Positions 3,597 to 20,309 of a stretch of DNA of 41,699 nt are shown piece by piece. Under the pieces are notes generated by a model. It was not told the DNA's origin. It saw only the letters and a program-made list of their open reading frames with translations, and searched no databases. Source of the DNA: Nitrosomonas sp. Nm33 (GTDB taxonomy: Bacteria > Pseudomonadota > Gammaproteobacteria > Burkholderiales > Nitrosomonadaceae). Within the stretch, counting starts at the first letter, position 1, and each line of letters begins with the position of its first letter. The DNA is taken from contig NZ_FNPJ01000021.1 in assembly GCF_900107265.1 (NCBI RefSeq), positions 1 through 41,699 of the forward strand, written 5' to 3'. Made by a program: the position numbers and the translations under genes.

Positions 3597-3872
3597 ATCT
3601 GCCAAACCTCTTTCCCATTGAATAAAGTCTCCATAGGAGTTTTCCCATTTCAGATTTTACCCTGATGAGTTCTTTCATTATTGTAATAATCGATCCAACT
3701 GTTCAGGTCTTTCTTAAGGATTCTAAATCATAGTTGCGCTTCTTGCGGAAAGTTACTTGATAGAATTCCTGCAGAATGGTTTTGTGAAATCGTTCACAAA
3801 TACCGTTGGTCTGTGGAGACATCACCTTGGTTTTGGTGTAATCGATATCATTGATTGCGAGGTACAACTGGG
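3597..3872 (-). pseudogene. IS481-family transposase remnant (C-terminal half)
   Basis: The reverse strand translates to LYLAINDIDYTKTKVMSPQTN, then GICERFHKTILQEFYQVTFRK, typical of the C-terminal catalytic part of IS481-type integrases, with the final E of the DDE triad in ICERFHK. After about 60 residues the frame breaks with a stop and shifts, but fragments such as WIDYYNNERTHQG can be followed. The N-terminal part is missing. The same sequence starting with its ATCGATATCATTGATTGCG stretch recurs at 6753, marking the borders of the tandem duplication. Confidence 0.8.
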
Positions 3873-3885
3873 GAAACTATTGACT

Positions 3886-3990
3886 ATGCAAACATTTACA
3901 TTGGTTTTTCTTATTGCACTATTGCTTACAACACTGACCCGGATTTGGCTGGCAGTAAGACATATTCGATATAGTAATGACAGGATTTAA
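3886..3990 (+). pseudogene. N-terminal stub resembling M48-family (STE24-like) peptidase
   Basis: A 34-residue ORF reading MQTFTLVFLIALLLTTLTRI followed by WLAVRHIRYS. This matches the first membrane helix and the R-H-I-R junction of bacterial M48 CAAX-type peptidases as I remember them. It then stops, with no HExxH domain. A second copy exists near 6884, split by an IS. It is probably what remained after the IS481-type element and later rearrangement cut the peptidase gene. The match is from a short hydrophobic segment, so identity is moderate. Confidence 0.45.
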
Positions 3991-4096
3991 ATTTACAAAA
4001 AACCAAGAATATGTATTTCTTGGTGGTTTCCTGAGCGCGCCTGATATTGCTTACTATGGGTAAGTATGGTGGGAAGAATCATCAATCAGAAACTAG

Positions 4097-4120
4097 AAGG
4101 GGACGATTAACGCCCCCTTT
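4097..4120 (-). terminator. Terminator hairpin closing duplicated unit A
   Basis: Stem AAGGGGGCG / CGTCCCCTT (minus strand) with a 5-base TTAAT loop, just after the stop of the small gene at 4133. The tail is only weakly T-rich on either strand. The equivalent hairpin in copy B (8227-8249) keeps pairing despite base changes. Confidence 0.6.
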
Positions 4121-4132
4121 GTTTGCTCAGTG

Positions 4133-4300
4133 CTAGCTCAGTACAGTGACATCATTCCAGCTAATTTGGCCGGGTTGTTCCGTTACTCCATTTTCAACTT
4201 CGAGAAAGGCCGTTACAGCGCCATTCTCAATGGTAAATGTAAACCGTTTATCACTGCTGGTGGATAAATCATCATGTCCTGAGCTGATTTTTTCCCTCAT
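4133..4300 (-). CDS. Small hypothetical protein downstream of cupredoxin-propeller gene, copy A
   Basis: Reading from ATG at 4300 gives 55 residues: MREKISSGHDDLSTSS, then FTFTIENGAVTAFLEVENG, ending SWNDVTVLS. A longer reading from 4354 exists, but the copy B counterpart has a clear GAGGAG site before an ATG just upstream of the shared SGHDD segment, which favours a short protein of about 52-55 aa. There is no signal peptide. The beta-strand-like pattern suggests it may be the end of a lost secreted domain rather than a complete protein. It lies between the propeller gene stop and the terminator. Copy B has a one-base deletion that destroys it. Confidence 0.45.
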   Translation of the reverse strand: MREKISSGHDDLSTSSDKRFTFTIENGAVTAFLEVENGVTEQPGQISWNDVTVLS

Positions 4301-4390
4301 CAATATAAGGTAAGTAAAAGTATAAACAGTATTACAAATAGTATTACAAATCATGAGACTCTATCGAACACTGCTTATACCCGTCTTAGC

Positions 4391-6226
4391 TTATTTAATT
4401 GGATTAATTGGATCACGTTGCGCTGGGGTTAGCTGATCACTCCAGGAAGCAGGTAGATTCTGAACCCAGCCGTTATACACGAGCGGGATTGGCAGTACGC
4501 CTTGCCCCCCCATTCCAGGATTACCTTTTATGGTGTCATCCAGTTTTGTTGCGCCTGCAGCAAACAGTCCTACTTGACCTGCAATCATGGCATCGGAGGG
4601 ATCGCCATCATTGTTTGGATCAGGATCGACAACTAGCAGTCTGTTGGAGAATTTGCTGGCAACATACGCATAGTAACCGCCTCCTTGTTTGGCGCCGTAT
4701 TGCACACCGTGGCAACCAGGATCGCAAGGCAACATGGCAACAACTTCATCAGTGCTGGTATTGACAACAGTAATCGTGCCTGTGAGCGTATTGGATGTGA
4801 CCATATTTTTCCCATCGGGGGAAACGGGAGTTTGAACCGGTAATGCACCTACAGGGCCGGAAATGGTTCCTGCCACGGGATCATAATCTTTTAGCAGATC
4901 AATATGCTTGATAACTTGATGTGTGTCCATGTTTATAACAGCGATGGTGTTGTCAAGGAAATTCGAAACATAATATTTGCTGCTATCCGGCATCATGCCG
5001 GCTGCCAAAGGATGACTGAATTCACCACCGACTTTTGTAAGGGAATCAATACCATTTGTATGGAAATTGTATTGCGTGGAATCGCCGAAAAGGGCGTTTG
5101 CCGTTACCATGGTTTTGCCCTCATGACTCATCCAATGCGCATGTGGATTGCCTTGTCCAATATTTATCGTACGCAGCACCTCGGTTGCGAGTGGAGCTAG
5201 TTCCATGACTGAATCTTTTACATCATCGCCGTTATTGGTGACGTGAATCCGATCGCTATCGGGCAGAGTCATCACATGCGCAGGTGATTCGCCCACAGAT
5301 ACATTGCGAATCAATTTACCCGTTTGACGATCAAAAACAGCCAGTTTATCGTCAAACCATTGTGTCACATAAATAACGGTTTGATCTTTATCGGTCCACA
5401 TATTGTGTGGATTGTTCATGTCGATGGAAGGCAACGCTACTTTGCGGGTGACCTGCCAGGAAGAGCCATCTACCGCTGATACCGTACCTGGGTTTCCTTT
5501 TCCTGAGGTGGTTTCAAACTCAGTGGCTACCCAAACTTCACCTACTGCGGGTGTTTTAGGATTTTGAAGCGCTGCCAAGGGAGTATCATTGCCATAGCGA
5601 GCATTCAGCATTTCTGGCAAGTTAACGACGCCACTATCCACACGTACATCAACATTAGGATAGGTAATATGCCATGGTTTATTACTTGCATAGTTCTGCC
5701 AGTTATCAGGATTGGTCGCGATAAAGAAAGTGCGTAATAGGCGGGTTGCCAGATCGCTGCTGCTTGGCACAGTAATGCCATTGATTAAACTGAGTGAAGA
5801 TCCTAAATCCAGACCGGTGGTATTAGGATCATCAACAATCACTGCACCGAGCATGAAAGGATGAATACTACAGAAAAAAACATATAAGCCCGGCGTTGTC
5901 AGCGTTACATCATCGCCCCCATCCGAATGTTTCGTATCATTATGTGGCATACCAGCGGCTCCAGTTGGGAAGATCAAACTGGTTCTTGTGTGCACCGTAT
6001 TGGAATCACCAGAAAATTTAACCCGCACACCAGGCTGGGCAATTGCAATGGAGCGATTGCCTGCGATCGCTGTTCCGGTGTCAAACCAGAGTGCTGCGTT
6101 GTCTGTCAGTGCAAATCGGACTTCGTTATCACCAGCAGAAACGTTGCTTACAGATGACAAGGTTAAGATTGCTGAGGAATAAACTGCCAGGTTCACAATC
6201 TTTTTGATAAAAGACCTATCAAACAT
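4391..6226 (-). CDS. Exported cupredoxin / beta-propeller copper protein, copy A
   Basis: A 611-residue protein. Residues 1-31 are a Sec signal peptide (cleavage likely after SNVSA). Residues about 33-135 form a cupredoxin with type-1 copper ligands H79, C119, H122 and M125 in YVFFCSIHPFMLG, close to the amicyanin/plastocyanin pattern. After a linker, residues about 225-560 form a YVTN/YncE-like beta-propeller with repeats such as GTITVVNTSTDEVVA. Histidines recur near blade starts: NPH274N, PAH317, PH362AH364W, SH405P, CH506G. C501-DPG-C505-H506 is a CX3CH motif that could be a disulfide or an unusual haem c site. RBS GGAGAAC lies 8 bases before ATG 6226. Role is inferred as periplasmic copper binding or electron transfer. 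The nearly identical copy B is at 8509-10347. Confidence 0.85.
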   Translation of the reverse strand: MFDRSFIKKIVNLAVYSSAILTLSSVSNVSAGDNEVRFALTDNAALWFDTGTAIAGNRSIAIAQPGVRVKFSGDSNTVHTRTSLIFPTGAAGMPHNDTKHSDGGDDVTLTTPGLYVFFCSIHPFMLGAVIVDDPNTTGLDLGSSLSLINGITVPSSSDLATRLLRTFFIATNPDNWQNYASNKPWHITYPNVDVRVDSGVVNLPEMLNARYGNDTPLAALQNPKTPAVGEVWVATEFETTSGKGNPGTVSAVDGSSWQVTRKVALPSIDMNNPHNMWTDKDQTVIYVTQWFDDKLAVFDRQTGKLIRNVSVGESPAHVMTLPDSDRIHVTNNGDDVKDSVMELAPLATEVLRTINIGQGNPHAHWMSHEGKTMVTANALFGDSTQYNFHTNGIDSLTKVGGEFSHPLAAGMMPDSSKYYVSNFLDNTIAVINMDTHQVIKHIDLLKDYDPVAGTISGPVGALPVQTPVSPDGKNMVTSNTLTGTITVVNTSTDEVVAMLPCDPGCHGVQYGAKQGGGYYAYVASKFSNRLLVVDPDPNNDGDPSDAMIAGQVGLFAAGATKLDDTIKGNPGMGGQGVLPIPLVYNGWVQNLPASWSDQLTPAQRDPINPIK

Positions 6227-6260
6227 TAAATGTTCTCCATGGATTAATTAATACTATTCT

Positions 6261-6290
6261 CAGTTTGCCGTTAGTTTGGCGAAACTGGGT
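6261..6290 (-). promoter_or_regulatory. Intercistronic hairpin between small peptide and cupredoxin genes, copy A
   Basis: CAGTTTGCC pairs with GGCGAAACTG with one bulge. It is followed on the plus strand by GGGTTTTTT, but on the minus (sense) strand it lies within the leader of the propeller gene. The copy B version is a perfect 11-bp stem, so the structure is kept although the bases differ. Confidence 0.45.
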
Positions 6291-6349
6291 TTTTTACTTT
6301 TTCCTATCTCACGTTACAGTGGTTGGTCGTCTTAAACATGGTTGTTAAT

Positions 6350-6544
6350 CTAAAGGAGTTTTCCAACGCGCCTTGCTTCAAGATCATCGGCTGCCATGTA
6401 CAAGTTCTGCAAAAGCATATGCACTATTTGTGTATCCAATATAGTCGCATAGTCGCTTGAATTGACTATTTGTCGTGCCAGGGCTGGAGCAGAAGTAAGA
6501 CCTATACTTAGTGTAAGAATTGAAATGTTTGAGAGTCTTCTCAT
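6350..6544 (-). CDS. Small secreted peptide preceding cupredoxin-propeller gene, copy A
   Basis: A 64-residue ORF starting MRRLSNISILTLSIGLTSAP, with a signal peptide cut after APALA, leaving a mature peptide of about 40 residues: RQIVNSSDYATILDTQIVH followed by MLLQNLYMAADDLEAR. A good AGGAG lies 7 bases before the ATG. No family recognised and no cysteine is present. It is the first gene of the duplicated unit and sits directly downstream of the conserved palindromes; the large copper protein follows 123 bases later. The second copy (10498-10692) differs by a single residue (D to N), which supports a real coding sequence. It could be a chaperone, subunit or leader peptide; none of these can be shown here. 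Confidence 0.7.
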   Translation of the reverse strand: MRRLSNISILTLSIGLTSAPALARQIVNSSDYATILDTQIVHMLLQNLYMAADDLEARRVGKLL

Positions 6545-6599
6545 AGCACTCTCCTTGATTTAGTTAATGCAGCATCAGCAAAACCATCACGATGTATAT

Positions 6600-6742
6600 T
6601 GTGTGATTATTTCCCACACAGAAGGAATAGTAAATGAAAATAATTCTCATGTCTACATTTTGTGTAAAAATTTCCCACAAAATGCTTGCCGCATTACCGT
6701 ATCGTATTATTATTACAATGTCATCATGTCATTATTACAATG
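6600..6742 (-). promoter_or_regulatory. Operator/promoter region of unit A: two palindromes plus direct repeat
   Basis: Two copies of TGTGTRAWWATTTCCCACA lie at 6600-6618 and 6661-6679, 61 bases apart (about six helical turns). The second is part of a longer palindrome, CATTTTGTG / CACAAAATG. Further upstream ATTATTACAATG occurs at 6709 and 6731 with 22-base spacing. All are conserved in copy B. They look like binding sites of a dimeric regulator controlling the small peptide and copper-protein genes. The regulator is unknown. Confidence 0.6.
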
Positions 6743-6752
6743 TTATTAATGT

Positions 6753-6860
6753 GTGATCGATATCATTGATTGCGAGGTACAACTGGGAATCGTAATGTTC
6801 AACCCGTCCACAATACTCCGTACCTCTATCAGTTAATATCCGTAACATTGGCAAATTATG
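6753..6860 (-). pseudogene. IS481-family transposase remnant at the unit A/B border
   Basis: The reverse strand reads RILTDRGTEYCGRVEHYD, then QLYLAINDIDH, the central catalytic segment of the transposase whose C-terminal half lies at 3597-3872. The two fragments share the last 30 or so bases, so the border of the tandem duplication falls inside this old insertion sequence. Confidence 0.75.
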
Positions 6861-6932
6861 CATTGTGTTGTGTCATATTGACTATGCAAACATTTACATT
6901 GGTTTTTCTTATTGCGCTATTTGTAAGAAACC

Positions 6933-7999
6933 TCAGGGTTGTTTACAGAGAGGTTGATTGAAATAATGTTGGAGTATTTCATAAGGAGTTGAGTTATTCA
7001 AACTCTTGTGAGGTTTGACAGTGTTATAAAAGTTAATAAAGCGGCCGAGTTGAATTTTCCGGTCGGTGCAGTCTTTAAAGTTGGTCTTGTCATGCCACAT
7101 CTGCATTAGAGTGCGGATAGCGCGTTCAGCCTTGCCGTTGGTTTGGGGTCGATTGACTTGAGTGAATTTCTGGCCGATGCCGTGCGCTTTGCAGGTTTTA
7201 ACGAAAGCATGACTGTCAGTGCCCTTATATTCTTTGCCATTATCAGAATAAGCATAATCCTAAATTCCTCAGTTGAAGACTCCTAAATCGCTCAAGAACC
7301 CTATTGATTAAGGTTCTTTGAAAGATCCATGGCATTACCAATCAGATGAGATTTTAGTGAAATAATCAAAATCTGCTGAAAGTGTTGCCACACCTTGCTC
7401 TCAGCTTGTTTACTGTAACTGAGGAGCAGTTAACATTTTTGGCTATGAACCGTTGATAGTATTAGATTACAGCTATTTTCATTCTAAATTCCAACTGAGG
7501 AATTTAGGATAATCGATCTGGTAAGGGCATTGGGCGATAACGGTTTCGGTGAGGAACCAGGCGGCGCTATTTTGGGTTTTATCGGGCAGGATGGCTGCAT
7601 GGAGTTCTCGGGAGAAGTCATCAATCGCGACAAACAGGTATTCCCTTGGTTGGGTGATTGGCCTTTGAGCAAAGGCAAGCGTTTAGTATCGAAATGCACG
7701 AGTTCGCCAGGATAAGACTTGTTATAACGCTTTGCCTCATGTTTCAAGCGCTCCTGGATGGACTGCTCGACTTTGGCTAAGCGTTTGAGGCCGTACTGGA
7801 TTGTTTTAAAACGTTGATTGGTACTGTCACGGGGAACAAACTCCTTGAGCCTTGCCCGTTTGAGAACAGTGTAGATCGTAGGTCTTGAGACTCGAAAGCG
7901 TTCGGCAAGTTGGGACACTTTCCAGCAGCGAGTTTGGTAAAGCTGCCACAGCTCCTGACAGTCAAGTGGCGTAAGTCTTATATGTTTGTGCATGTTCAT
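6933..7999 (-). pseudogene. IS481-family transposase, frameshifted and split by a MITE
   Basis: The N-terminus (from ATG 7999) has a helix-turn-helix, VSQLAERFRVSRPTIYTVL, then HFDTKRLPLL with the first catalytic D. One base is missing near 7655: the frame leaves at QSPNQ, while REYLFVAIDDFSREL follows in the next frame. Removing the MITE at 7259-7508 joins PYQIDY directly to AYSDNGKEYKG (second D). Then GKAERAIRTLM gives the E, and the protein ends at TGA 6933-6935. Two lesions make it inactive. Confidence 0.85.
7259..7508. mobile_element. 250-bp MITE with perfect 17-bp terminal inverted repeats
   Basis: Left end CCTAAATTCCTCAGTTG and right end CAACTGAGGAATTTAGG are exact inverses. ATAAT flanks both sides (7254-7258, 7509-7513) as a 5-bp target duplication. 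It has no ORF. Excision in silico restores the transposase reading frame, which proves the boundaries. Confidence 0.9.
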
Positions 8000-8226
8000 T
8001 TACAGTATTCTCCACAATACTGTAAACAACGCTAGAAATTCTTACACACTATTGCTTACAACACTGATCCAGATTTGGCTGGCAGTAAGACATATTCGAT
8101 ATAGTAATGACAGGATTTAAATTTACAAAAAACCAAGAATCTGTATTTCTTGGTAATTTCCTGAGCACGCCTGATATTGCTTACTATGGGTAAGTATGGT
8201 GGGAAGAATCATCAATTAGAAACTAG

Positions 8227-8249
8227 AAGGGGGCGATTAATGCCCCCTT
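8227..8249 (-). terminator. Terminator hairpin closing duplicated unit B
   Basis: On the plus strand AAGGGGGCG, ATTAA, TGCCCCCTT. Compared with copy A the stem has changed on both arms (GGGGAC/CGCCCC to GGGGGC/TGCCCC) while staying a stable 8-9 bp hairpin. Confidence 0.6.
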
Positions 8250-8262
8250 TGTTTGCTCAGTG

Positions 8263-8417
8263 CTAGCTCAGGACAGTGACATCATCCCAGCTAATTTGAC
8301 CGGGTTGTTCCGTTACTCCATTTTCAACTTTAAAAAAGGTCGTTACAACGCATTCTCAATGGTAAATGTAAACTGTTTATCACTGCTGGTGGATAAATCA
8401 TCATGTCCTGATCTCAT
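8263..8417 (-). pseudogene. Small gene downstream of cupredoxin-propeller, copy B, frameshifted
   Basis: ATG at 8417 has a strong GAGGAG site 7 bases upstream and reads MRSGHDDLSTSSDKQFTFTI, then stops because one base is missing relative to copy A (CGTTACAACGCATTC versus CGTTACAGCGCCATTC). The remaining codons down to DVTVLS and TAG 8263-8265 are still readable in the other frame. Its RBS shows where the ancestral start lay. Confidence 0.5.
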
Positions 8418-8508
8418 TTTTTTCTCCTCATCAATATAGGTAAGTCAAGGTATAAACAGTATTACAAATCATGAGACTCTATCGAACACTGCTTATACCC
8501 GTCTTAGC

Positions 8509-10347
8509 TTATTTAATTGGATTAATTGGATCACGTTGCGCTGGGGTTAGTTGATCACTCCAGGAAGCAGGCAGATTCTGAACCCAGCCGTTATACACGA
8601 CTGGGATTGCCAGGACGCCTTGCCCCCCCATTCCAGGATTACCTTTTATGGTGTCATCCAGCTTTGTTGCGCCTGCAGCGAACAGTCCTACTTGACCTGC
8701 AATCATGGCATCGGAGGGATCGCCATCATTGTTTGGATCAGGATCGACAATTAGCAGTCTGTTGGAGAATTTGCTGGCAACATACGCATAGTAACCGCCT
8801 CCTTTTTTGGCGCCGTATTGCACACCGTGGCAACCAGGATCGCAAGGCAACATGGCAACAACTTCATCAGTGCTGGTATTAACAATAGTAATCGTGCCTG
8901 TGAGCGTATTCGCTGTGATCATATTTTTCCCATCGGGAGAGACGGGGGTTTGAATCGGTAATGCACCTACAGGGCCGGAAATGGTTCCTGCCACGGGATC
9001 ATAATCTTTTAGCAGATCAATATGCTTGATAACTTGATGTGTGTCCATGTTTATAACAGCGATGGTGTTGTCAAGGAAATTCGAAACATAATATTTGCTG
9101 CTATCCGGCATCATGCCGGCTGCCAAAGGATGACTGAATTCACCACCGACTTTTGTAAGGGAATCAATACCATTTGTATGGAAATTGTATTGCGTGGAAT
9201 CGCCGAAAAGGGCGTTTGCCGTTACCATGGTTTTGCCCTCATGACTCATCCAGTGTGCGTGTGGAGCGCCTCGTCCAATATTCACCGTACGCAGCACCTC
9301 GGTTGCCAGAGGAGCCAGTTCCATCACAGAATCATTTTGGGTGTCGCCATTATTCGTGACGTGAACCCGATCGCTATCGGGCAGAGTCATCACATGCGCA
9401 GGTGATTCGCCCACAGATACATTACGAATCAATTTACCCGTTTGACGATCATAAACAGCCAGTTTACTGTCAAACCATTGTGTCACATAAATAACGTTTT
9501 GATCTTTATCGGTCCACAGATTGTGTGGATTGTTCATGTCGATGGAAGGCAACGCTACTTTGCGGGTGACCTGCCAGGAAGAACCATCTACCGCTGATAC
9601 CGTACCTGGTTTTTGTTTTCCTGACGTAGTTTCAAACTCAGTGGCTACCAAAACTTCACCTACTGCCGGTGTCTTTGGATTTTCAAGTGGTGCCAACGGG
9701 ATATCATTGCCATAGCGCGCATTCAGCATGGTCGGCAGATTAACGACACCGCTATCCACACGCACGTCAATATCGGGATAGGTAACATGCCACGGTTTGT
9801 TATCCGCGTAGTTTTGCCAGTTATCAGAGTTGGTCGCGATAAAGAAAGTGCGTAATAAGCGGGTTGCCAGATCACTACTACTTGGGAAGGTAGGGCCATT
9901 GATTAAACTGAGTGAAGATCCAAGATCCAGACCAGTAGTATTTGGATCATCGACAATCACTGCACCAAACATGAAGGGATGGACGCTGCAGAAGAAAACA
10001 TATAAACCTGGCGTTGTCAGCGTTACCTCATAGCTGCTTTCGTCAGCTGGCGTATTAAATGGCATGTTAGCCGCTCCAGTTGGAAAGATCAAACTGGTTC
10101 TCGTGTGCACCGTGTTGGAATTGTCCCAATCAAACTTGACTCGTACACCCGGCTGGGCAATTGCAATAGAGCGGTTGCCTGCGATCGCTGTTCCGGTATC
10201 AAACCAGCGTGCTGGGTCATCTCTCGGTATAAATACGACTTCGTTAGCATTAGCAGCAGAAGCGTTGTTTATAGACAAACAAGTTAAGAGTGCTGAAGAA
10301 CAAACCGTCAGGTTCACAATTTTTTTAAAATATGACATATCAAGCAT
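8509..10347 (-). CDS. Exported cupredoxin / beta-propeller copper protein, copy B
   Basis: A 612-residue near-twin of the 4391-6226 product with the same plan: signal peptide ending in NNASA, a cupredoxin with H, C, H, M in YVFFCSVHPFMFG, then a YVTN-type propeller. The propeller keeps all blade histidines (NPHN, SPAH, PHAHW, SHP) and LPCDPGCHG. Differences cluster in the cupredoxin surface, for instance SSYEVT for DGGDDVT near the copper loop, and in the first blades. The C-terminal 300 residues are almost unchanged. RBS AAGGAGAGC precedes ATG 10347. Two intact copies suggest gene dosage or early divergence. Copy B is next to DUF6502 and probably represents the original locus. Confidence 0.85.
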   Translation of the reverse strand: MLDMSYFKKIVNLTVCSSALLTCLSINNASAANANEVVFIPRDDPARWFDTGTAIAGNRSIAIAQPGVRVKFDWDNSNTVHTRTSLIFPTGAANMPFNTPADESSYEVTLTTPGLYVFFCSVHPFMFGAVIVDDPNTTGLDLGSSLSLINGPTFPSSSDLATRLLRTFFIATNSDNWQNYADNKPWHVTYPDIDVRVDSGVVNLPTMLNARYGNDIPLAPLENPKTPAVGEVLVATEFETTSGKQKPGTVSAVDGSSWQVTRKVALPSIDMNNPHNLWTDKDQNVIYVTQWFDSKLAVYDRQTGKLIRNVSVGESPAHVMTLPDSDRVHVTNNGDTQNDSVMELAPLATEVLRTVNIGRGAPHAHWMSHEGKTMVTANALFGDSTQYNFHTNGIDSLTKVGGEFSHPLAAGMMPDSSKYYVSNFLDNTIAVINMDTHQVIKHIDLLKDYDPVAGTISGPVGALPIQTPVSPDGKNMITANTLTGTITIVNTSTDEVVAMLPCDPGCHGVQYGAKKGGGYYAYVASKFSNRLLIVDPDPNNDGDPSDAMIAGQVGLFAAGATKLDDTIKGNPGMGGQGVLAIPVVYNGWVQNLPASWSDQLTPAQRDPINPIK

Positions 10348-10407
10348 TAAATGCTCTCCTTGGATTAATTAACACTATTACTATTAGTTTTCCGCTTTTG
10401 TATTCAT

Positions 10408-10437
10408 CCAGTTTTGCCGTTAATTCGGCAAAACTGG
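10408..10437 (-). promoter_or_regulatory. Intercistronic hairpin, copy B
   Basis: A perfect 11-bp stem, CCAGTTTTGCC / GGCAAAACTGG, with an 8-base loop, followed on the plus strand by GTTTTTT. By shape it is a plus-strand terminator, yet no plus-strand gene precedes it. On the sense (minus) strand it sits 60 bases before the copper-protein start and could stabilise or process the mRNA. Confidence 0.55.
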
Positions 10438-10497
10438 GTTTTTTACTTTCCCTATCTCACGTTACAGTGGTTGGTCGTCTTAAACATGGTTGTTAAT

Positions 10498-10692
10498 CTA
10501 AAGGAGTTTTCCAACGCGCCTTGCTTCAAGATCATCGGCTGCCATGTACAAGTTCTGCAAAAGCATATGCACTATTTGTGTATTCAATATAGTCGCATAG
10601 TCGCTTGAATTGACTATTTGTCGTGCCAAGGCTGGAGCAGAAGTAAGACCTATACTTAGTGTAAGAATTGAAATGTTTGAGAGTCTTCTCAT
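10498..10692 (-). CDS. Small secreted peptide preceding cupredoxin-propeller gene, copy B
   Basis: 64 residues, identical to the 6350-6544 product except N for D (ILNTQ). Same signal peptide, same AAGGAGAG ribosome site, same position as first gene of the unit. Function unknown. Confidence 0.7.
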   Translation of the reverse strand: MRRLSNISILTLSIGLTSAPALARQIVNSSDYATILNTQIVHMLLQNLYMAADDLEARRVGKLL

Positions 10693-10747
10693 AGCACTCT
10701 CCTTGATTTAGTTAATGCAGCATCAGTAAAACCATCACGATGTATAT

Positions 10748-10890
10748 TGTGTGATTATTTCCCACACAAAAGGAATAGTAGATGAAAACAATTCTCATGT
10801 CTACATTTTGTGTAAAAATTTCCCACAAAATGCTTGCCGCATTACCACATCATGTTATTATTACAATGTCATCGTGTTATTATTACAATG
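10748..10890 (-). promoter_or_regulatory. Operator/promoter region of unit B
   Basis: The same two TGTG-N11-CACA palindromes are at 10748-10766 and 10809-10827 (61 bases apart). The ATTATTACAATG pair lies at 10857 and 10879 (22 bases apart). Here the region separates the minus-strand copper unit from the plus-strand DUF6502 gene starting at 10946, so it may serve both. Confidence 0.6.
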
Positions 10891-10945
10891 TTATTAATTT
10901 CAGATTTAATTTGATAATCTGATATTCTTATTTTTAAAATGCACT

Positions 10946-11818
10946 GTGCTTCCTTCCACTTCAATACTTTCACCAGCACTCGTTTCTGCGTTGCGCCGTG
11001 TATTGCGGCCATTTATCAAATTGATGCTAGCAAAGGGAATTACTTACAATTATTTATCTGAATTATTAAAAGATATTTTTGTAGAGGTAGCAGAAAAAGA
11101 ATGCAGGATTGGAGGAAAGCCTTCTAGTGATAGTCATTTGAGCTTACTGACGGGTATCCATCGTAAAGATATCAAACGATTACGTCATAGTGACCATTCC
11201 ACTATTCAAGTTATCCCGCACGCTGTTTCAATGGGCGCGCGACTCGTAAGCCTGTGGACAAGTGATACGCGTTATCTGGATGAAAGCAATCAGCCCAGGC
11301 CATTGCCCAGATTTATTAAAGAAGGTGGAGATATTTCTTTTGAAGGACTGGTTGCCAGTGTGAGCTGTGATATCCGTTCGCGAGTTGTACTTGACGAATG
11401 GTTAAGGCTCGGTATAGCTCGCTTTGATGAAAAAAATCGCGTGTGTCTCAATACCGCTGCATTTGTCCCTGCACATGGCTTTGATGAAAAAGTTTATTAT
11501 TTTGGTCATAACTTGCACGATCATGCAGCAGCAGCTACCAGTAATTTGTTACAAGATGATCAACCATTTTTAGAGCGCAGTGTTTATTACGATGCACTAA
11601 GCGTGGATTCAGTTAGAGTATTGGCTGAAAAGTCTGAAAGTCTGGGAATGGAATCTTTACTTGCCATCAACAAAGAGGCCATAGAACTAAAAACAAATGA
11701 TGCACTGAATAATAGTCCACGTTACCGTATGACATTTGGTATTTATTGCTTCAGCGAATCTGTTGAACCCGAGATACCTGTTGAGAAGAAAAATAATGTA
11801 CATAATATGAATGAATAA
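10946..11818 (+). CDS. DUF6502-family protein, possible regulator
   Basis: A 290-residue soluble protein opening with a GTG codon (MLPSTSILSPALVSAL). The N-terminal 80 residues match the DUF6502 pattern: RRVLRPFIKLMLAKGITYN, SELLKDIFVEVAEKE, then LSLLTGIHRKDIKRL. This reads like a two-helix DNA-binding (HTH) arrangement. The remainder, with FIKEGGDISFEGLVASV and WLRLGIARFDEKNRV, is typical of the family; its function is not established. It is transcribed away from the copper unit, sharing the operator region 10748-10890. Regulation of the copper unit by this protein is an inference from position only. Family call is from memory. Confidence 0.7.
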   Translation: MLPSTSILSPALVSALRRVLRPFIKLMLAKGITYNYLSELLKDIFVEVAEKECRIGGKPSSDSHLSLLTGIHRKDIKRLRHSDHSTIQVIPHAVSMGARLVSLWTSDTRYLDESNQPRPLPRFIKEGGDISFEGLVASVSCDIRSRVVLDEWLRLGIARFDEKNRVCLNTAAFVPAHGFDEKVYYFGHNLHDHAAAATSNLLQDDQPFLERSVYYDALSVDSVRVLAEKSESLGMESLLAINKEAIELKTNDALNNSPRYRMTFGIYCFSESVEPEIPVEKKNNVHNMNE

Positions 11819-13676: not shown

Positions 13677-16600
13677 TTATATTTTTTCGGTTTTAAATGA
13701 ACGCTGAATCTGCATTTCCTTAATCATTGCATAAATGGCTGGGAAAATGATCAGCGTCAGCACAGTGGCTGAGACCATGCCGCCAACCATTGGAGCAGCA
13801 ATGCGCCGCGTTATCTCTGAACCGGTGCCCGTACTCAGTATGACTGGCAACAAGCCCACGATACTGCCGGCAATGGTCATCATGACGGGACGTATCCTTC
13901 TCACTGCACCTTCTGACACGGCAGCATAGAGATCTTCAATGGTGACTTTTTCACCAGCTGCATGGCGTTTTGTTGTAATGGATTTGAACGCTTGATCGAG
14001 GAAGGTCAGCATCACCATACCGATTTCGGCTGCGATACCCACTAGACCGATGAAACCCACTGCGACCGCAGTACTCATGTTATAACCAAGCCAGTAAATC
14101 AGCCAGATGCCCCCGATCACGGAAAAAGGCACTGTCAGCATCACGATCAATGTTTCGGTCAGACGATTGAAATTTAAATAGATCAGCACAAATACGATTA
14201 ACAGCGTAAAGGGCACCACCACTTTCAATTTCTCGATGGCACGCTGCATATATTCAAACTGGCCGCTCCAGGTAGCGTAGTACCCCGGTGGGAATTGTAC
14301 TTGTTCTCGGACTGCCTGCTGCGCATCCGCGATATAGCTGCCGATATCACGATCACGTATATCAACAAAAATGTAAGCGGACAGCAAAGCGTTCTCGGTG
14401 CGAATGCTCGGCGGCCCTTTGACAAGCTTAATCTGCGCAAGCTGTCCCAGTGGAATCATCGCTCCGCCCATAGTAGGGACCAGCACCTGTGTCGCAATCG
14501 CTTGCGGGTCGCTGCGCAGTTCACGTGGGTAGCGCACGGTGACTCCATAGCGCTCACGTCCTTCAACGGTAGTAGTAATCGTTTCGCCCCCCAATGCTGT
14601 GGTAATCACTTCCAGCAGATCACCGACAGCCAAGCCATAACGCGCAAGTGCCATACGGTCAGGTTCGATATCGAGGTAATAACCACCAGTGGTTCGTTCC
14701 GCATAGACACTAGCGGTGCCAGGCACTGTTTTGACGGCCATTTCGATCTGCTTGCCGAGTTTTTCTATTTCATCCAGATCGCTGCCAAATACTTTAATAC
14801 CAATTGGTGTACGGATGCCGGTTGCCAGCATGTCAATCCTGTTTTTGATCGGCATTGTCCAGGCATTACTGACACCGGGTATTTGCAGCGCTTGATCCAG
14901 TTCAGCAATCAGCTTGTCGATGGTCATGCCGGGACGCCACTCACTTTCCGGTTTCAGATTGATGATGGTCTCGGTCATTTCCAATGGCGCTGGATCAGTC
15001 GCGGTATTGGCGCGGCCAGCTTTACCAAATACCGATGCCACTTCTGGAAAGCTTTTAATGATTTTGTTCTGAGTTTGCATGAGTTCCGCCGCTTTGGTGA
15101 CGGAGATAGCCGGCAGCGTCACCGGCATATAAAGCAGCGTACCTTCATTCAACGGTGGCATAAATTCGGATCCCAGTTTGACAGCCGGATAAATAGTTAA
15201 TCCTAATAAAACAATGGCAGCAACGAGTATGCTTTTCTTCCATTTGATGACCCATGGAATGAGGGGCTGATAAAGCCGGATCATGAGCCGACCCAGTGGA
15301 TTATCCTGCTCACGCGGAATACGGCCCCAAATCAGCAGTAGCATCAGCGCTGGAACCAGCGTGATGGATAGGAGTGCAGCACCTGCCATGGCAAATGTCT
15401 TGGTAAAGGCGAGTGGTTGAAACATGCGCCCTTCCTGAGCCTCGAGCGTGAATATCGGCAGAAACGATACCGTAATAATCAGCAGGCTGAAAAATAACGC
15501 CGGCCCGACTTCCTTACATGCTGTAATAATGGCATCCCTACGCGCCGCTGCGGGAGCAAGCGGATCAAGGCGTGCAAGGTGTTTATGCGTATTCTCCACC
15601 ATGACAACCGCGGCGTCGGTCATCTCGGCAATGGCGAGTGCGATGCCAGCCAGACTCATGATGTTGGAGTTGATGCCCAGGTGAAACATGACAATGAAAG
15701 CGATAAGCACACCGATTGGCAATATGATGATCGCCACCAGCGCACTGCGCACATGCATGAGAAAAACGGCACATACCAGCGCCACGATAATCACCTGCTC
15801 GATCAACACTTCGTCCAGTGTCGCGATAGCACGCTCAATCAACTCGGAACGGTCATAAACAGATTGAATCGTTACGCCTTCCGGTAAACCCGGTTTAAGA
15901 TCATCGATTTTCGCTTCGATATCGCGGATAACATTGAGCGCATTCTCGCCATAGCGCGCAATGGCGATCCCTGAAACGGCTTCGCCTTCACCATTGAGTT
16001 CAGTGATCCCACGGCGTTCATTGGGCGCCAGCTCAACACGGGCGACATTACGCAATAGTACCGGCATACCCTCGTGTGCTTTTACGACCAGATTCTCTAG
16101 GTCACTGATGCTGCGTAAGTATCCTTTGCCACGCACCATGTACTCGGTTTCTGTAAGCTCGATCACACGCCCGCCCACATCGCGATTACTCTGAGCAACA
16201 ACATTGATCACCGTCTTAAGTGAAATGCCATAAGCTTGTAAACGCCGTGGATCGACCGTAATCTGATAAGTTTTCTCAAACCCTCCGACGCTAGCTACTT
16301 CCGACACCCCTTCCGTCGCGACCAATTGATAACGCAGAAACCAGTCTTGGATACTGCGCAGCTCATCCAGTGTCCGTTCTTCAGCAGTAACGACATATTG
16401 ATAAACCCAACCTACTCCAGTCGCGTCTGGACCGAGCGCGGGCCTGACACCCTGTGGCAATTTGTTAGCTGCAAAATTCAGGTATTCCAACACACGTGAA
16501 CGTGCCCAATAGATATCAGTACCATCTTCAAAAATGACGTAGATAAACGACACCCCAAAGGCCGACATTCCCCGCACTACTTTCGATTTGGGCACACTCA

Positions 16601-16820
16601 GCATGGCCGTAGTCAGTGGATAAGTAACCTGATCTTCAACCACTTGCGGTGCCTGGCCGGGATATTCGGTATAGATGATGACCTGAACATCGGATAAATC
16701 AGGAATTGCATCAACAGGCGTTTTCAACACTGCATACACGCCCCAGGCAACGATAAAGAATGTTGCCAGCAATATTAGAAAAACATGCCGTACCGACCAT
16801 TCGATTATTTTGCTAACCAT
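13677..16820 (-). CDS. cusA: CusA-type heavy-metal RND efflux pump (Cu/Ag)
   Basis: 1047 residues, normal length for the family, with the RND topology of TM1, a large periplasmic loop, TM2-6, a second loop and TM8-12. The N-terminus has TPVDAIPDLSDVQVIIYTEY, a CusA/CzcA hallmark. TM4 has EMTDAAVVMVENTHKHL with the proton-relay acidic residues. The second loop has Met-rich GSEFMPPLNEGTLLYMPV and DPAPLEMTETI, typical of Cu(I)/Ag(I) rather than Zn/Co pumps. It works in the inner membrane with CusB and CusC. It starts one base after the cusB stop (16822), so the two are translationally coupled. The 3' end at 13677 is close to an IS630 element. Confidence 0.9.
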   Translation of the reverse strand: MVSKIIEWSVRHVFLILLATFFIVAWGVYAVLKTPVDAIPDLSDVQVIIYTEYPGQAPQVVEDQVTYPLTTAMLSVPKSKVVRGMSAFGVSFIYVIFEDGTDIYWARSRVLEYLNFAANKLPQGVRPALGPDATGVGWVYQYVVTAEERTLDELRSIQDWFLRYQLVATEGVSEVASVGGFEKTYQITVDPRRLQAYGISLKTVINVVAQSNRDVGGRVIELTETEYMVRGKGYLRSISDLENLVVKAHEGMPVLLRNVARVELAPNERRGITELNGEGEAVSGIAIARYGENALNVIRDIEAKIDDLKPGLPEGVTIQSVYDRSELIERAIATLDEVLIEQVIIVALVCAVFLMHVRSALVAIIILPIGVLIAFIVMFHLGINSNIMSLAGIALAIAEMTDAAVVMVENTHKHLARLDPLAPAAARRDAIITACKEVGPALFFSLLIITVSFLPIFTLEAQEGRMFQPLAFTKTFAMAGAALLSITLVPALMLLLIWGRIPREQDNPLGRLMIRLYQPLIPWVIKWKKSILVAAIVLLGLTIYPAVKLGSEFMPPLNEGTLLYMPVTLPAISVTKAAELMQTQNKIIKSFPEVASVFGKAGRANTATDPAPLEMTETIINLKPESEWRPGMTIDKLIAELDQALQIPGVSNAWTMPIKNRIDMLATGIRTPIGIKVFGSDLDEIEKLGKQIEMAVKTVPGTASVYAERTTGGYYLDIEPDRMALARYGLAVGDLLEVITTALGGETITTTVEGRERYGVTVRYPRELRSDPQAIATQVLVPTMGGAMIPLGQLAQIKLVKGPPSIRTENALLSAYIFVDIRDRDIGSYIADAQQAVREQVQFPPGYYATWSGQFEYMQRAIEKLKVVVPFTLLIVFVLIYLNFNRLTETLIVMLTVPFSVIGGIWLIYWLGYNMSTAVAVGFIGLVGIAAEIGMVMLTFLDQAFKSITTKRHAAGEKVTIEDLYAAVSEGAVRRIRPVMMTIAGSIVGLLPVILSTGTGSEITRRIAAPMVGGMVSATVLTLIIFPAIYAMIKEMQIQRSFKTEKI

Positions 16821-16821
16821 C

Positions 16822-18426
16822 TCAGTGTTCTCCGCGTTCGTTGACGACGGGGCTGGTGTTTACTGGATGGATACGGACGAGCAGGTATTCCCCTGCTGAT
16901 TCCTCGGTGATTTCGAATGTGACTCTCTGGCCTGGCTTTAACGAGCGAAGTAATGCCGGATCAGCAATGCGGAAATCCATAATCATCGAAGGCCAATTGA
17001 GACTGGCGATCGGTCCATGCGCAAGTGTGATGGTTGTATGCGCAAAATCAATTGCCTTAATATTGCCCTCACCACGATGAGTTTTTGGCGGTGCGCTTTC
17101 AATGAACGTGCCAGGTTCGGCGTGTGATTTTTCGCTTTTCGCTAAGGAATGGTCTCCGGGACCAAAGCCACTTATGGCTGCCTTGAGGTTACTTTCTGCA
17201 TCGATCAGAAAATTTGCCTTGACCACCACGGCTTCCCCTGCTTCAAGCCCTCCTAATACCTCAGCATAACCATCGGCCTGCATACCGAGTTTTACCGTGC
17301 GCGGTTCATAACGGCCTGCACCAAGATCAACCAGTACCAACTGTCGTATGCCAGTATCGAGTACTGCTGAGTCAGGGACAGTAAGTACTTTTTCCTTACT
17401 ATGAAAAGTAGCAAACTCCGCGCGTGCGTACATATCTGGTTTAAGCAGTCCATCAACATTGGGCAGCTCAATGCGCACGAGAGCAGTACGTGTTTCTGGT
17501 GTCACTTCGGGATAGATAAAAGCCACCTTACCACTGAATACCTTATCCGGGTAGGCATCGACTCTGATGGTAGTCATCTGACCTGGACGAATCATACGGA
17601 GATCTTGTTCAAACACATCAGCCAATACCCATACGCTTGATAAGTCGACAATCTTATAAAGCTCCTCTCCAGGCTCAAAGCGTTTGCCTTCAATGGATGG
17701 TTTTTCCAGCACGACGCCATTTGCTTGGGAGCGTAGCGTAAGATATTGCCTGATTTCGCCTTCACGCTGCAGGCGCTGCAATTCAATCTCCGATATGTCT
17801 AAGTTGCGCAATCGCTGCAATGCACTCTCGATCAGCCTTTGCACTCCAGCTCGCGCATCTGGGCTGCCCTCGGCAACCATACGCATGCCTTTCATTGCAA
17901 TAAAATATTCGTGTTGTGCCGTAATCAGAAGAGGACTATAAACATCCATCAATGCATCGCCTTTTTTGACTGCTTGGCCAGTGGTATTGACGTAGAGTCG
18001 ATGAATCCATCCCTCGAATTTGGTCACTAACGTGTACAATTTACGCTCATCTGGCTGTATTGTGGCCACAGCCCTGACGGTATGAATCATCTCTCGTAAC
18101 ATGGCAGTTTCAGTCCGAACTCCCAGTTTTTGTATTTTTTCAGTGCTAATCTTCACCGCCGCACTATCCACTGGAGGTTCTTCACCTTCATAAACGGGAA
18201 TATAGTCCATCCCCATCGGATCCTTCTTAGGCACTGGCGAGGTATCCGGTAGTCCCATCGGATTGCGGTAATAAAGAATCTTACCCTTCGCAGTGGTAAC
18301 CTCGGGTGACTCGGCCACAGGCTTAACAGACTGGATATTTCCCCACCAATATCCTGCAACGAGTGAAAGTGTGATCAAAACAGCAATAAGAATTACTTTA
18401 GCAAGTGCTCTCATAGCGAACTCCAT
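16822..18426 (-). CDS. cusB: CusB-type periplasmic adaptor with C-terminal CusF-like domain
   Basis: 534 residues, longer than plain CusB. An N-terminal membrane anchor is followed by a heavy-metal-binding segment (residues about 50-80, YRNPMGLPD...KKDPMGMDYIP), then barrel, lipoyl and hairpin domains (KFEGWIHRLYVNTTGQAVKK, then VLEKPSIEGKRFEPGEELYK). Residues about 453-522 form an extra CusF-like domain with LAHGPIASLNWPSMIMDF, giving the H, W, M, M metal site. It joins CusA to CusC and should hand on Cu(I). The ATG at 18426 overlaps the cusC stop (TAATG); a second possible start is Met5. Confidence 0.9.
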   Translation of the reverse strand: MEFAMRALAKVILIAVLITLSLVAGYWWGNIQSVKPVAESPEVTTAKGKILYYRNPMGLPDTSPVPKKDPMGMDYIPVYEGEEPPVDSAAVKISTEKIQKLGVRTETAMLREMIHTVRAVATIQPDERKLYTLVTKFEGWIHRLYVNTTGQAVKKGDALMDVYSPLLITAQHEYFIAMKGMRMVAEGSPDARAGVQRLIESALQRLRNLDISEIELQRLQREGEIRQYLTLRSQANGVVLEKPSIEGKRFEPGEELYKIVDLSSVWVLADVFEQDLRMIRPGQMTTIRVDAYPDKVFSGKVAFIYPEVTPETRTALVRIELPNVDGLLKPDMYARAEFATFHSKEKVLTVPDSAVLDTGIRQLVLVDLGAGRYEPRTVKLGMQADGYAEVLGGLEAGEAVVVKANFLIDAESNLKAAISGFGPGDHSLAKSEKSHAEPGTFIESAPPKTHRGEGNIKAIDFAHTTITLAHGPIASLNWPSMIMDFRIADPALLRSLKPGQRVTFEITEESAGEYLLVRIHPVNTSPVVNERGEH

Positions 18427-19826
18427 TAATGGTGATCTGCTAATTCATCAGGGGTTTTGCCAGTAAGCAGATCGATTTCTGCGAGCGCCTTGTTGTAGTT
18501 GGCTATCGCTGTCACCAGGCTGATTTCGTAATTAAATACCGTCATCTGGCTATCAAGCAGCGTGAGAAAATCGACCTGATTAACTCGGTAGGCAGCCAGC
18601 GCTGATTCAACCGTGAGTCTGGCCTGTGGCAGAATGGTAGTTTGATACAGCTGCACCGATTTGAAATTCTGCTCAGCCGTTGCCACCTGTTGCCGCAGTT
18701 TTGCCGCAATCTCGTTAATTTGCGCCTGATGCAGATCCAATGCTTGATAGTGCAGCGCTTGCGATTCCGCAATACGTGGTTCGATTTTACTGGTGCGCCA
18801 TACCGGAAGGTTAATCGCCACAGTCAGGCTGACCATGTCAGGGCGCGATGTGTTATCTAACATCCTATCCCGCTGGCCATACGCAAGGCGCACATCAAAA
18901 TCCGGATAATATGCTTTTTGCGCGAGTTCCACTGCTTTTTTATTGCGCGCGGCAAGGCTCTGCAGTGCTAATAATTGCGGCCGCTGCGTCATTGCTCTCT
19001 CCCGCAATGATTCCAGCTTCAAGGAGGCTTGATGAATGTGTAGCGACTCGGGTATCAGCTCTCCAGCATAAGCACTACGACCAAGCGCGCGAATAAGCTC
19101 TGCTTCAATCACGGGCCGTTCGCGTGCCAGCTTGAGCAACTCATCCTGCATTCTGGATACCTGTGTCTGCGCCTTGAATGCATCGGCCTGAGTACCCATT
19201 CCCACCCGGTAATGATCCACAGCCAAGTGAGTAAGATCTTCCAGAATCAACTTGTTTTTCTCGACCAGCTTGGTCATTTCCAGAGTAAGCCCCAGGTCGA
19301 AATAAGCAACTTTGAGATCACGTACTACTCGATTTACTGTTTCTTGATAGCCGTAATCAATCGCTTCTGCGTCCTTGCTGGCAACTTCCTTGCGTAAACC
19401 ACGTTTCCCCGGAAAGGGGAAACGCTGGGATAGGCCAATCATTTTCATGGTCATATCCTCGCGATTGAATGGCGAAGATGCCAAGGGCGCATTAATCACT
19501 CCCGCTTCCAGCACAGGATCATCCAGTGCCTCTGCCGGTAATATTCTCCGCTGAGCTGCTTCGCGTTCCCGCTGCGCAGCCTGTATTTCCGGATTGTTCT
19601 GTAAGACCTCGGTGATGAGGGTGGCCAGTGGCGTAACCTGCTTGCCATCGACTGTGGGCTTATCTTGCTGAAATATCGCTGGATGAGCATGGTTTGAAGC
19701 ATCTGCCCGCACATTGAGCGGAATCACCATCCCTAAAACCCATACTGCGATAATTCCATTCCTGAGTATGGAAAAAACATTTCTAGCGCTGTCCGGCGAT
19801 GAGGCAATCATTTTGCTCTCCCTCAC
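18426..19826 (-). CDS. cusC: CusC-type outer-membrane efflux protein (TolC family)
   Basis: 466 residues. There is an N-terminal signal region, then two repeats of the outer-membrane efflux family: LITEVLQNNPEIQAAQRERE, the PLASSPFNREDMTMKMIGL segment, and in the second half VRLAYGQRDRMLDNTSRPDM and LTVAINLPVW. It forms the trimeric exit duct for CusBA. Met6 at 19811 is an alternative start. It lies 43 bases after cusF and overlaps cusB. Confidence 0.88.
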   Translation of the reverse strand: MRESKMIASSPDSARNVFSILRNGIIAVWVLGMVIPLNVRADASNHAHPAIFQQDKPTVDGKQVTPLATLITEVLQNNPEIQAAQREREAAQRRILPAEALDDPVLEAGVINAPLASSPFNREDMTMKMIGLSQRFPFPGKRGLRKEVASKDAEAIDYGYQETVNRVVRDLKVAYFDLGLTLEMTKLVEKNKLILEDLTHLAVDHYRVGMGTQADAFKAQTQVSRMQDELLKLARERPVIEAELIRALGRSAYAGELIPESLHIHQASLKLESLRERAMTQRPQLLALQSLAARNKKAVELAQKAYYPDFDVRLAYGQRDRMLDNTSRPDMVSLTVAINLPVWRTSKIEPRIAESQALHYQALDLHQAQINEIAAKLRQQVATAEQNFKSVQLYQTTILPQARLTVESALAAYRVNQVDFLTLLDSQMTVFNYEISLVTAIANYNKALAEIDLLTGKTPDELADHH

Positions 19827-19869
19827 GTATCAATGTATCACTGATATACGACCTCCCTGATAGCCACAC

Positions 19870-20190
19870 CTATTTACTCCGCTGGATATGCGTAACTATA
19901 TAGTCCCCATTCGACTGAATGAATGTAAAAGTCACACTGTCACCCACTTTGATTTCTTGCATGGGAGCACGCTCCTTGACCTTAAAATTCATCACCATAG
20001 CTGGCCATTTAAGTGATGCAATCGGCCCATGGGCAAGTTTTACGATGTTCTTATCCAAATCAATCGCTTTTACCGTTGCTGTTCCCTCATGAGACACGGC
20101 GGCAGCACCGGCAAGCTGCATGGTGATCAACCCAGCCAATACGGATAAAACACAAACATTGACAAAAACAACCATTACGTTTCGTTTCAT
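19870..20190 (-). CDS. cusF: CusF periplasmic copper/silver chaperone
   Basis: 106 residues from ATG 20190, chosen for AGGAG 8 bases upstream; a longer frame begins at 20259. A signal peptide ends near LAGAAA. The mature part is a CusF-fold domain with the Cu(I)/Ag(I) site H54, W62, M65 and M67 in LAHGPIASLKWPAMVMNF. It delivers metal to CusB/CusA. The same domain is also fused to the end of CusB here, so the system has two CusF modules. Confidence 0.9.
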   Translation of the reverse strand: MKRNVMVVFVNVCVLSVLAGLITMQLAGAAAVSHEGTATVKAIDLDKNIVKLAHGPIASLKWPAMVMNFKVKERAPMQEIKVGDSVTFTFIQSNGDYIVTHIQRSK

Positions 20191-20252
20191 GATTCTCACT
20201 CCTGAATAAATAAATCTTGGTATACAAATCGCTCTAGTAATCCAAGCAGGCA

Positions 20253-20309
20253 AATACATCCTGGCACACTGGCAGGATGTATTGCGCTTTCCTTCTAATG
20301 AGGAAAGCG
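20253..20309. promoter_or_regulatory. Two adjacent hairpins between the membrane-protein gene and cusF
   Basis: AATACATCCTG / CAGGATGTATT (20253-20263, 20273-20283) is an 11-bp perfect stem with a 9-base loop. CGCTTTCCT / AGGAAAGCG (20285-20293, 20301-20309) is a 9-bp stem. Neither has a good T-tract. They may separate cusF expression from the upstream genes, or be an operator. Confidence 0.5.

What the first reader, a model, noticed from the sequence alone, without database searches (positions are those of the whole stretch)
3886..10890. Tandem duplication of a whole copper-protein operon
Two units of about 2.87 kb (3886-6750 and 6884-10890 after removing a later IS) share the same order of operators, small peptide, hairpin, copper protein, third gene, terminator and M48-like stub. 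Both start beside IS481-type remnants. The two copper proteins are intact and nearly identical at the C-terminal half but differ near the copper domain. Such dosage of an exported cupredoxin-propeller protein suggests a heavily used function, perhaps linked to ammonia oxidation or copper supply.
Basis: partly seen in the sequence, partly recalled or inferred. Interest (0 to 1): 0.75.

Follow-up and report, generated by a model that had tools for sequence, protein, structure and literature searches.

The report
Twinned nitrifier copper-propeller operon
In an ammonia-oxidising Nitrosomonas, an operon for a predicted exported copper protein stands twice in a row, its two copies likely kept alike in one half by gene conversion while the copper-binding half drifted apart; relatives of the protein occur in many other ammonia oxidisers, bacterial and archaeal, where it would act as a redox enzyme of still unknown job.

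Summary
The tandem duplication is real: 3917-6750 and 8047-10898 align at 90.6% over 2875 columns, with a late IS481-type element in the second unit. Both copper proteins are open (611 and 612 aa, 88-89% identical). Divergence is a mosaic: dS is 0.54 in residues 32-245 (cupredoxin and linker) but 0.05-0.09 in most of the propeller, while a second tandem pair in the same genome has 0.16 and 0.18. Gene conversion after an older duplication fits best. The third gene is a deletion remnant in both units, frame-broken in one.

The protein is an N-terminal type 1 cupredoxin joined to a seven-bladed propeller (pLDDT 91.7). Five near-invariant histidines and a glutamine start the inner strands of five blades: a predicted metal site in a register like that of the NosZ CuZ ligands, domain order reversed. 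Relatives occur in Nitrosomonas, Nitrosospira, comammox-type Nitrospira and some ammonia-oxidising archaea, but 5 of 37 Nitrosomonas genomes lack a strong match, so it is accessory. An operator-like motif almost private to these units in its genome is present in 19 of 19 related loci with an adjacent DUF6502 gene, a likely regulator. Function is inferred; the dosage idea is not supported.

The parts
3836..3872 (-). IS481 scrap at the distal end of unit A
   Evidence: 37-bp repeat of 6751-6787; overlaps ORF 3703-3867, which matches NF033577 IS481 transposase below its cut-off
3886..3990 (+).
   Evidence: ATG at 3886; repeated in unit B; in 116 fetched loci no match under E 0.4 outside the two units
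4097..4119 (-). terminator-like hairpin, unit A
   Evidence: fold of 4060-4150, z -1.11 (not beyond shuffles); hairpin present in both units
4133..4300 (-). third gene, unit A: 55-aa remnant keeping both ends of a longer repeat protein
   Evidence: both ends match relatives' longer gene, the middle is missing
4391..6226 (-). copper protein A, 611 aa: predicted signal peptide, cupredoxin, linker, seven-bladed propeller
6261..6287 (-). hairpin between the 64-aa ORF and copper protein A
   Evidence: fold, z -1.11 for the whole stretch, not beyond shuffles
6350..6544 (-). 64-aa exported-looking peptide, unit A
   Evidence: ORF; related longer peptides in some relatives
6600..6618 (-). operator-like site TGTGGGAAATAATCACACA, unit A
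6661..6679 (-). operator-like site TGTGGGAAATTTTTACACA, unit A, 61 bp from the other
6751..6787 (-). IS481 scrap between the units
   Evidence: repeat of 3836-3872
6876..6921 (.). distal end of unit B left of the IS
   Evidence: 98% repeat of 3878-3923
6922..8046 (-). IS481-type element inserted in unit B, itself interrupted by a palindrome-ended insert at about 7258-7509
   Evidence: NF033577 matches of ORFs 6933-7106 and 7484-7999, and PF13683 rve_3 match of 6933-7106; ends read
8227..8249 (-). terminator-like hairpin, unit B
   Evidence: fold, z -1.41, not beyond shuffles
8263..8423 (-). third gene, unit B: same remnant, frame broken
   Evidence: two tblastn pieces in different frames, alignment
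8509..10347 (-). copper protein B, 612 aa, the copy next to DUF6502, with the diverged N-terminal half
10408..10437 (-). hairpin before copper protein B, 12-bp stem
   Evidence: fold, z -2.61, 2 of 200 shuffles as good
10498..10692 (-). 64-aa exported-looking peptide, unit B
   Evidence: one residue different from unit A
10748..10766 (-). operator-like site TGTGGGAAATAATCACACA, unit B
10809..10827 (-). operator-like site TGTGGGAAATTTTTACACA, unit B
10946..11818 (+). divergent DUF6502 gene, likely the operon's regulator
   Evidence: PF20112 E 1e-28; adjacent in 19 of 34 Nitrosomonas loci; residues 33-88 resemble helix-turn-helix domains, weakly

Best explanation
The window holds a tandem pair of one small operon whose central gene encodes a predicted exported protein joining a predicted N-terminal type 1 copper cupredoxin to a predicted seven-bladed beta-propeller; the two copies have likely been partly re-homogenised by gene conversion, and the protein would pass electrons between its cupredoxin copper and a second metal site predicted at the propeller axis, likely acting on a small nitrogen compound. 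Shown here: the duplication; the mosaic of synonymous divergence; the near-invariant cupredoxin ligand set and propeller histidines; the distribution; the motif and its co-occurrence with DUF6502. Predicted with high model confidence: the seven-bladed fold. Inferred: that conversion rather than import made the mosaic; that copper is bound at either site; that the propeller residues form one metal site; that the reaction is redox; that the substrate is a nitrogen compound; that DUF6502 binds the motif. The original place is likely that of unit B, beside DUF6502. Unit A carries the sequence closer to relatives, and B's cupredoxin half has the longer branch while keeping all ligands.
Confidence: 0.42

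Rival explanations
1. Copper supply: the protein would bind or oxidise copper in the periplasm to feed the many copper enzymes of a nitrifier; the propeller site is a copper-holding or cuprous-oxidase site rather than a catalytic site for a nitrogen compound.
For: A copper-limitation study of Nitrososphaera viennensis (PMC7785015, passages read) found two-domain multicopper oxidases with an extra blue copper domain among the most induced genes, and the two longer family members tested carry multicopper oxidase domains. In this genome the long member on C145 follows a 326-aa multicopper oxidase gene (PF07732). About 3 kb beyond the operon pair the window carries a CusCBA/CusF-type copper efflux set.
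Against: That efflux set is not a shared neighbour: tblastn found no relative of it in the 34 Nitrosomonas loci, and one locus of the 116 (L085, Nitrosomonas marina) has one several kb away. Among the shared neighbour families I recognised no copper transporter, but only four neighbours were searched against Pfam.
Confidence: 0.27
2. Electron carrier or scaffold only: the cupredoxin carries electrons and the propeller is a docking platform without a metal.
For: Many listed propeller matches are proteins not known for a redox metal (recalled); the propeller's Pfam and NCBIfam hits are generic.
Against: Five histidines and one glutamine near the start of inner strands are conserved in 63-64 of 64 sequences, more than docking alone would seem to need.
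Confidence: 0.2
3. Unit B is a chimera: its N-terminal half was brought in by recombination from another Nitrosomonas lineage instead of drifting in place.
For: dS of 0.5 in the N-half against 0.05-0.09 in most of the rest; long end branch 0.40.
Against: B's N-half still groups with A and the Is37 protein (97/92). A search with that half listed nothing closer than 82% among its best 120 of 904 matches.
Confidence: 0.25
4. Assembly artefact, or a fresh duplication kept for dosage.
For: Only one assembly was seen; a protein 98% like A exists in Nitrosomonas sp. Is37, and no second B-like protein was listed.
Against: 205 mismatches between units, different insertions, a frame break in one unit only; synonymous divergence far above zero.
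Confidence: 0.03

Closest known systems
Nitrous oxide reductase NosZ (clades I/II)
   Same: Seven-bladed propeller plus a cupredoxin in one chain; histidines in like motifs (NPH, SPAH, NPHAH, GCH here; SPH, GPLH, IGH, EPHY in five Chloroflexota NosZ).
   Different: Cupredoxin is N-terminal and type 1 (C-x2-H-x2-M), not C-terminal CuA (C-x3-C); five conserved His and a Gln instead of seven His (seven recalled); sequence similarity marginal.
Clade III lactonase-type NosZ (L-NosZ, NCBIfam NF052460)
   Same: Local propeller similarity, E 6.7e-12 over residues 248-443 of A.
   Different: 44.7 bits against a cut-off of 700; 7 of 14 control genomes also match this model at E <= 0.001 without reaching the cut-off, so the match says little more than propeller.
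YVTN / lactonase-like propellers, hydrazine synthase beta subunit
   Different: No fused cupredoxin (recalled); the histidine set was not looked for in them.
Multicopper oxidase-propeller long form of ammonia oxidisers (about 920-980 aa)
   Same: Same cupredoxin-propeller unit, about 49-53% identical in most.
   Different: Multicopper oxidase domains in front (PF07732, PF07731 in both long proteins tested), absent here.
Nitrosocyanin (PDB 1iby)
   Same: Copper protein of ammonia oxidisers of unsettled function (PMC3764937, passages).
   Different: Single small domain (136 aa with signal peptide); no significant complementarity with the short form in 37 Nitrosomonas genomes (p 0.32; 0.048 if one broken and one further fragment copy are counted).

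Membership tests
Type 1 copper cupredoxin | His, Cys, His, Met ligand set | tested here: met
   H79, C119, H122, M125 in 64 of 64; pseudoazurin/amicyanin/NirK matches. Copper itself not testable.
Seven-bladed beta-propeller | seven four-stranded blades | tested here: met
   strand list of the model and matches to seven-bladed proteins; a prediction, not a solved structure
NosZ | C-terminal CuA cupredoxin with two bridging Cys | tested here: not met
   single Cys motif, cupredoxin N-terminal (compared)
NosZ | seven His binding CuZ (number recalled) | tested here: not met
   five near-invariant His and Q465; H405 in 40 of 64
L-NosZ (NF052460) | score over curated cut-off 700 | tested here: not met
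   44.7 and 42 bits
Multicopper oxidase | Cu-oxidase domains | tested here: not met
   none in A or B at E <= 0.001; present in the long form
IS481 transposable element (insert in unit B) | IS481 transposase with inverted ends and target duplication | tested here: met
   NF033577 partial matches, below the cut-off, the gene being broken; ends and repeated flank read
Transcription regulator (DUF6502) | DNA-binding helix-turn-helix | tested here: inconclusive
NosZ-like function | metal site at the propeller axis reached by electrons from the cupredoxin | not testable with these tools
   no coordinates or metals available

The most novel reading that the evidence does not exclude
Ammonia oxidisers of three lineages (Nitrosomonadaceae, comammox Nitrospira, some Nitrososphaeria) share a mirror-image analogue of nitrous oxide reductase: a type 1 copper domain in front of a propeller whose axis carries a five-histidine, one-glutamine copper centre, which turns over NO, hydroxylamine or N2O in the periplasm and could fill an unassigned nitrogen-oxide step of nitrification; the window shows that enzyme being diversified at its electron-entry half by duplication with conversion of the catalytic half.
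Probability: 0.17. Interest if true: 0.9.

Novelty: new variant of a known kind. Interest (0 to 1): 0.5.

Why it matters
Which enzymes handle NO and other nitrogen oxides in nitrifiers is still argued (recalled). A predicted copper protein with a second, highly conserved histidine set, spread over bacterial and archaeal ammonia oxidisers and likely carrying its own regulator site in Nitrosomonas, is a concrete candidate that can be purified and tested. The duplicate pair is a natural experiment: nearly the same propeller, two cupredoxins.

Tried and rejected
Recent dosage duplication: rejected by the mosaic of dS. NosZ or L-NosZ membership: rejected by score, domain order and cupredoxin type. 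Replacement of nitrosocyanin by the short form: tested in 37 Nitrosomonas genomes, not significant for the 21 short-form genomes (p 0.32; two of these, G003 and G032, are partial hits), 0.048 with one broken copy (G031) and one further fragment (G015) added, 0.36 for any family member. Fur-type box between the two operator-like sites: seen by eye, not consistently present in relatives. DUF6502 in PDB sequences: no match. A paper on DUF6502: none held. Conserved copper-efflux neighbour: not found in the 34 loci. Searches for a printed description of a nitrifier cupredoxin-propeller protein listed no paper that, from title, abstract start or the passages I opened, describes it; most listed papers were not opened, and the library lacks many subscription journals. 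Nitrosomonas Is37: no paper held.

Limits of counts. One search kept the best 80 of 204 matching stretches (79 loci). One search was given 42 of those 79 loci (41 genomes), 22 of 41 with PF02461; it gave no hit in the Nitrosomonas europaea draft, an ammonia oxidiser by name, so absence there is weak. AmoB was sought only in the 18 protein-positive, AmoA-negative Nitrospiraceae, not in the 96 double negatives. One search drew 250 genomes from a larger class and used the long form as query. Trees used 33 of 64 prepared rows. One search scored 2110 candidates that share short exact words and listed 120. One search tested 33 of 34 Nitrosomonas loci (one too short), with the motif loosened at one place and a hand-typed list of DUF6502 loci; shared descent is not corrected there or. 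The gene lists were typed by hand. The DUF6502 search found 3498 proteins, so the family is far wider than this operon.

Full report
The observation. The window lies on contig C72 of a genome of 3.2 Mb whose nearest named protein match is Nitrosomonas sp. Is37 (98%). Two units align at 90.64% over 2875 columns. Of four stretches folded, only the hairpin before copper protein B stands out from shuffles (z -2.61; the others -1.11 to -1.41). Unit B carries an IS481-type element at 6922-8046, itself interrupted by a palindrome-ended insert at about 7258-7509.

The duplication is old in one half and young in the other. Between copies A and B, dS is 0.50 in the cupredoxin, 0.59 in the linker, 0.05 in residues 246-330, 0.51 in 331-360, and 0.08-0.09 in 361-611. 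The longest run of codons without a third-position difference is 101; 20000 shuffles gave a mean of 29 and a maximum of 77. The peptide and the stretch before it are also nearly identical. A second tandem pair in the same genome (contig C93, 61% and 60% identical to A) has dS 0.155 and 0.183 in the two halves, smaller pieces ranging from 0.00 over 30 codons to 0.28; so the strong step belongs to the C72 pair and is not the family's rule. Trees of each half, on 33 of 64 prepared rows, keep A, B and the Is37 protein together (97/92 and 100/100), with an end branch for B of 0.40 in the N half and 0.024 in the C half. A search with B's N-half listed nothing nearer than 82% among its best 120. Conversion between tandem copies explains this most simply; import of B's N-half remains possible. 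The family turns over in this genome: five complete members plus relics on C57 and C120. The third gene was found with its C-terminal end in 19 of 31 relatives with enough downstream sequence, at 159-301 aa, 18 of the 19 at least 207; here it is cut to 55 aa in A and frame-broken in B, so the shared internal deletion likely came before the duplication, or spread by conversion.

Who has it. Of 37 Nitrosomonas genomes (own genus, window's genome included) 32 have a match below E 1e-40 to some member; five do not. In genome contigs the best 79 loci are mainly Nitrosomonas, Nitrospira, Nitrosospira and Nitrosovibrio, with ammonia-oxidising archaea and a few records named Methylomirabilis, Methanoperedens, Chloroflexi, Acidobacteria and Betaproteobacteria. 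In 175 Nitrospiraceae genomes, 56 have the protein at E <= 1e-60 and 61 have PF02461; 38 have both, 18 only the protein, 23 only AmoA, 96 neither (odds ratio 8.8, p 7e-10 without correction for descent). Seven of the 18 have AmoB, eleven do not. Four of four archaeal genomes tested have archaeal AmoA; 24 of 250 Nitrososphaeria genomes have a strong match to the long form. The gene is therefore enriched in ammonia oxidisers and accessory within them.

Copper genes nearby. A CusA, CusB (with a CusF domain), outer-membrane and CusF-like set lies at 13677-20259. It is not a conserved neighbour: no relative in the 34 Nitrosomonas loci, one in L085. On C145 the long family member follows a multicopper oxidase gene.

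Literature seen. PMC7785015 (passages): multicopper oxidases with an extra blue copper domain are strongly induced by copper limitation in an archaeal ammonia oxidiser. PMC3764937 (passages): Nitrosomonas sp. Is79 lacks nitrosocyanin; a protein of strain Is79A3 belongs to the present family. PMC13122619, PMC13274427 and PMC12569097 (passages): clade III NosZ exists as a recently reported group. PMC13374858 (passages): copper systems of nitrifiers are compared; 'cupredoxin', 'plastocyanin' and 'beta-propeller' do not occur in it. PMC5960693 (passages): no mention beyond a reference title. The original description of L-NosZ was not read.

Verdict. A real tandem duplication of ordinary kind, with a clear mosaic best read as conversion, of a gene that is more interesting than its duplication: a predicted cupredoxin-propeller protein with a conserved second histidine set, enriched in ammonia oxidisers across domains. 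Function remains inferred.

Noticed in passing
G000:C93:2582-6660 (L131): A second tandem pair of the same family in this genome, 91.9% identical over 2173 bp, without the strong step in divergence.
   Followed up: yes
G000:C57:2620-2979 (L133) and G000:C120:6305-6676 (L134, 1806-2177): Two relics of the family: an N-terminal piece and an N-terminal piece joined to a C-terminal piece; the C57 relic runs into an unrelated-looking gene, perhaps an assembly join.
   Followed up: partly
window 6922-8046: IS481-type element with a nested insert of about 250 bp that has palindromic ends (about 7258-7509), MITE-like.
   Followed up: partly
window 6350-6544 and 10498-10692; L038-L042, L046: The small exported-looking peptide shares a C-terminal motif ([DE][RL]E[AS]RR[IV]GKLL) with 6 of 34 Nitrosomonas loci; five of these carry a His-containing tail after it that the window copies lack, the sixth (L038) looks frame-broken.
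   Followed up: partly
window 6620-6660 and 10768-10808: A Fur-box-like stretch (TGAAAATAATTCTCA on the + strand in unit A) lies between the two operator-like sites; not consistently found in relatives.
   Followed up: partly
G000:C145 (L132, 615-4394): The long family member (928 aa) directly follows a 326-aa multicopper oxidase gene (PF07732): a likely gene pair.
   Followed up: partly
window 13677-20259: CusA-, CusB-, outer-membrane- and CusF-type copper efflux genes; CusB carries a fused CusF domain.
   Followed up: partly
34 Nitrosomonas loci, upstream of DUF6502: In 16 of 34 loci a roughly 600-aa protein recurs beyond DUF6502; the one tested has DUF5666. I did not see it in the window, where a methyltransferase-like ORF and transposase remnants follow.
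   Followed up: no
L042 and L052: Another Nitrosomonas assembly (N. ureae MAG LH-05nov19-234) has two short-form copies, one with a broken frame.
   Followed up: no
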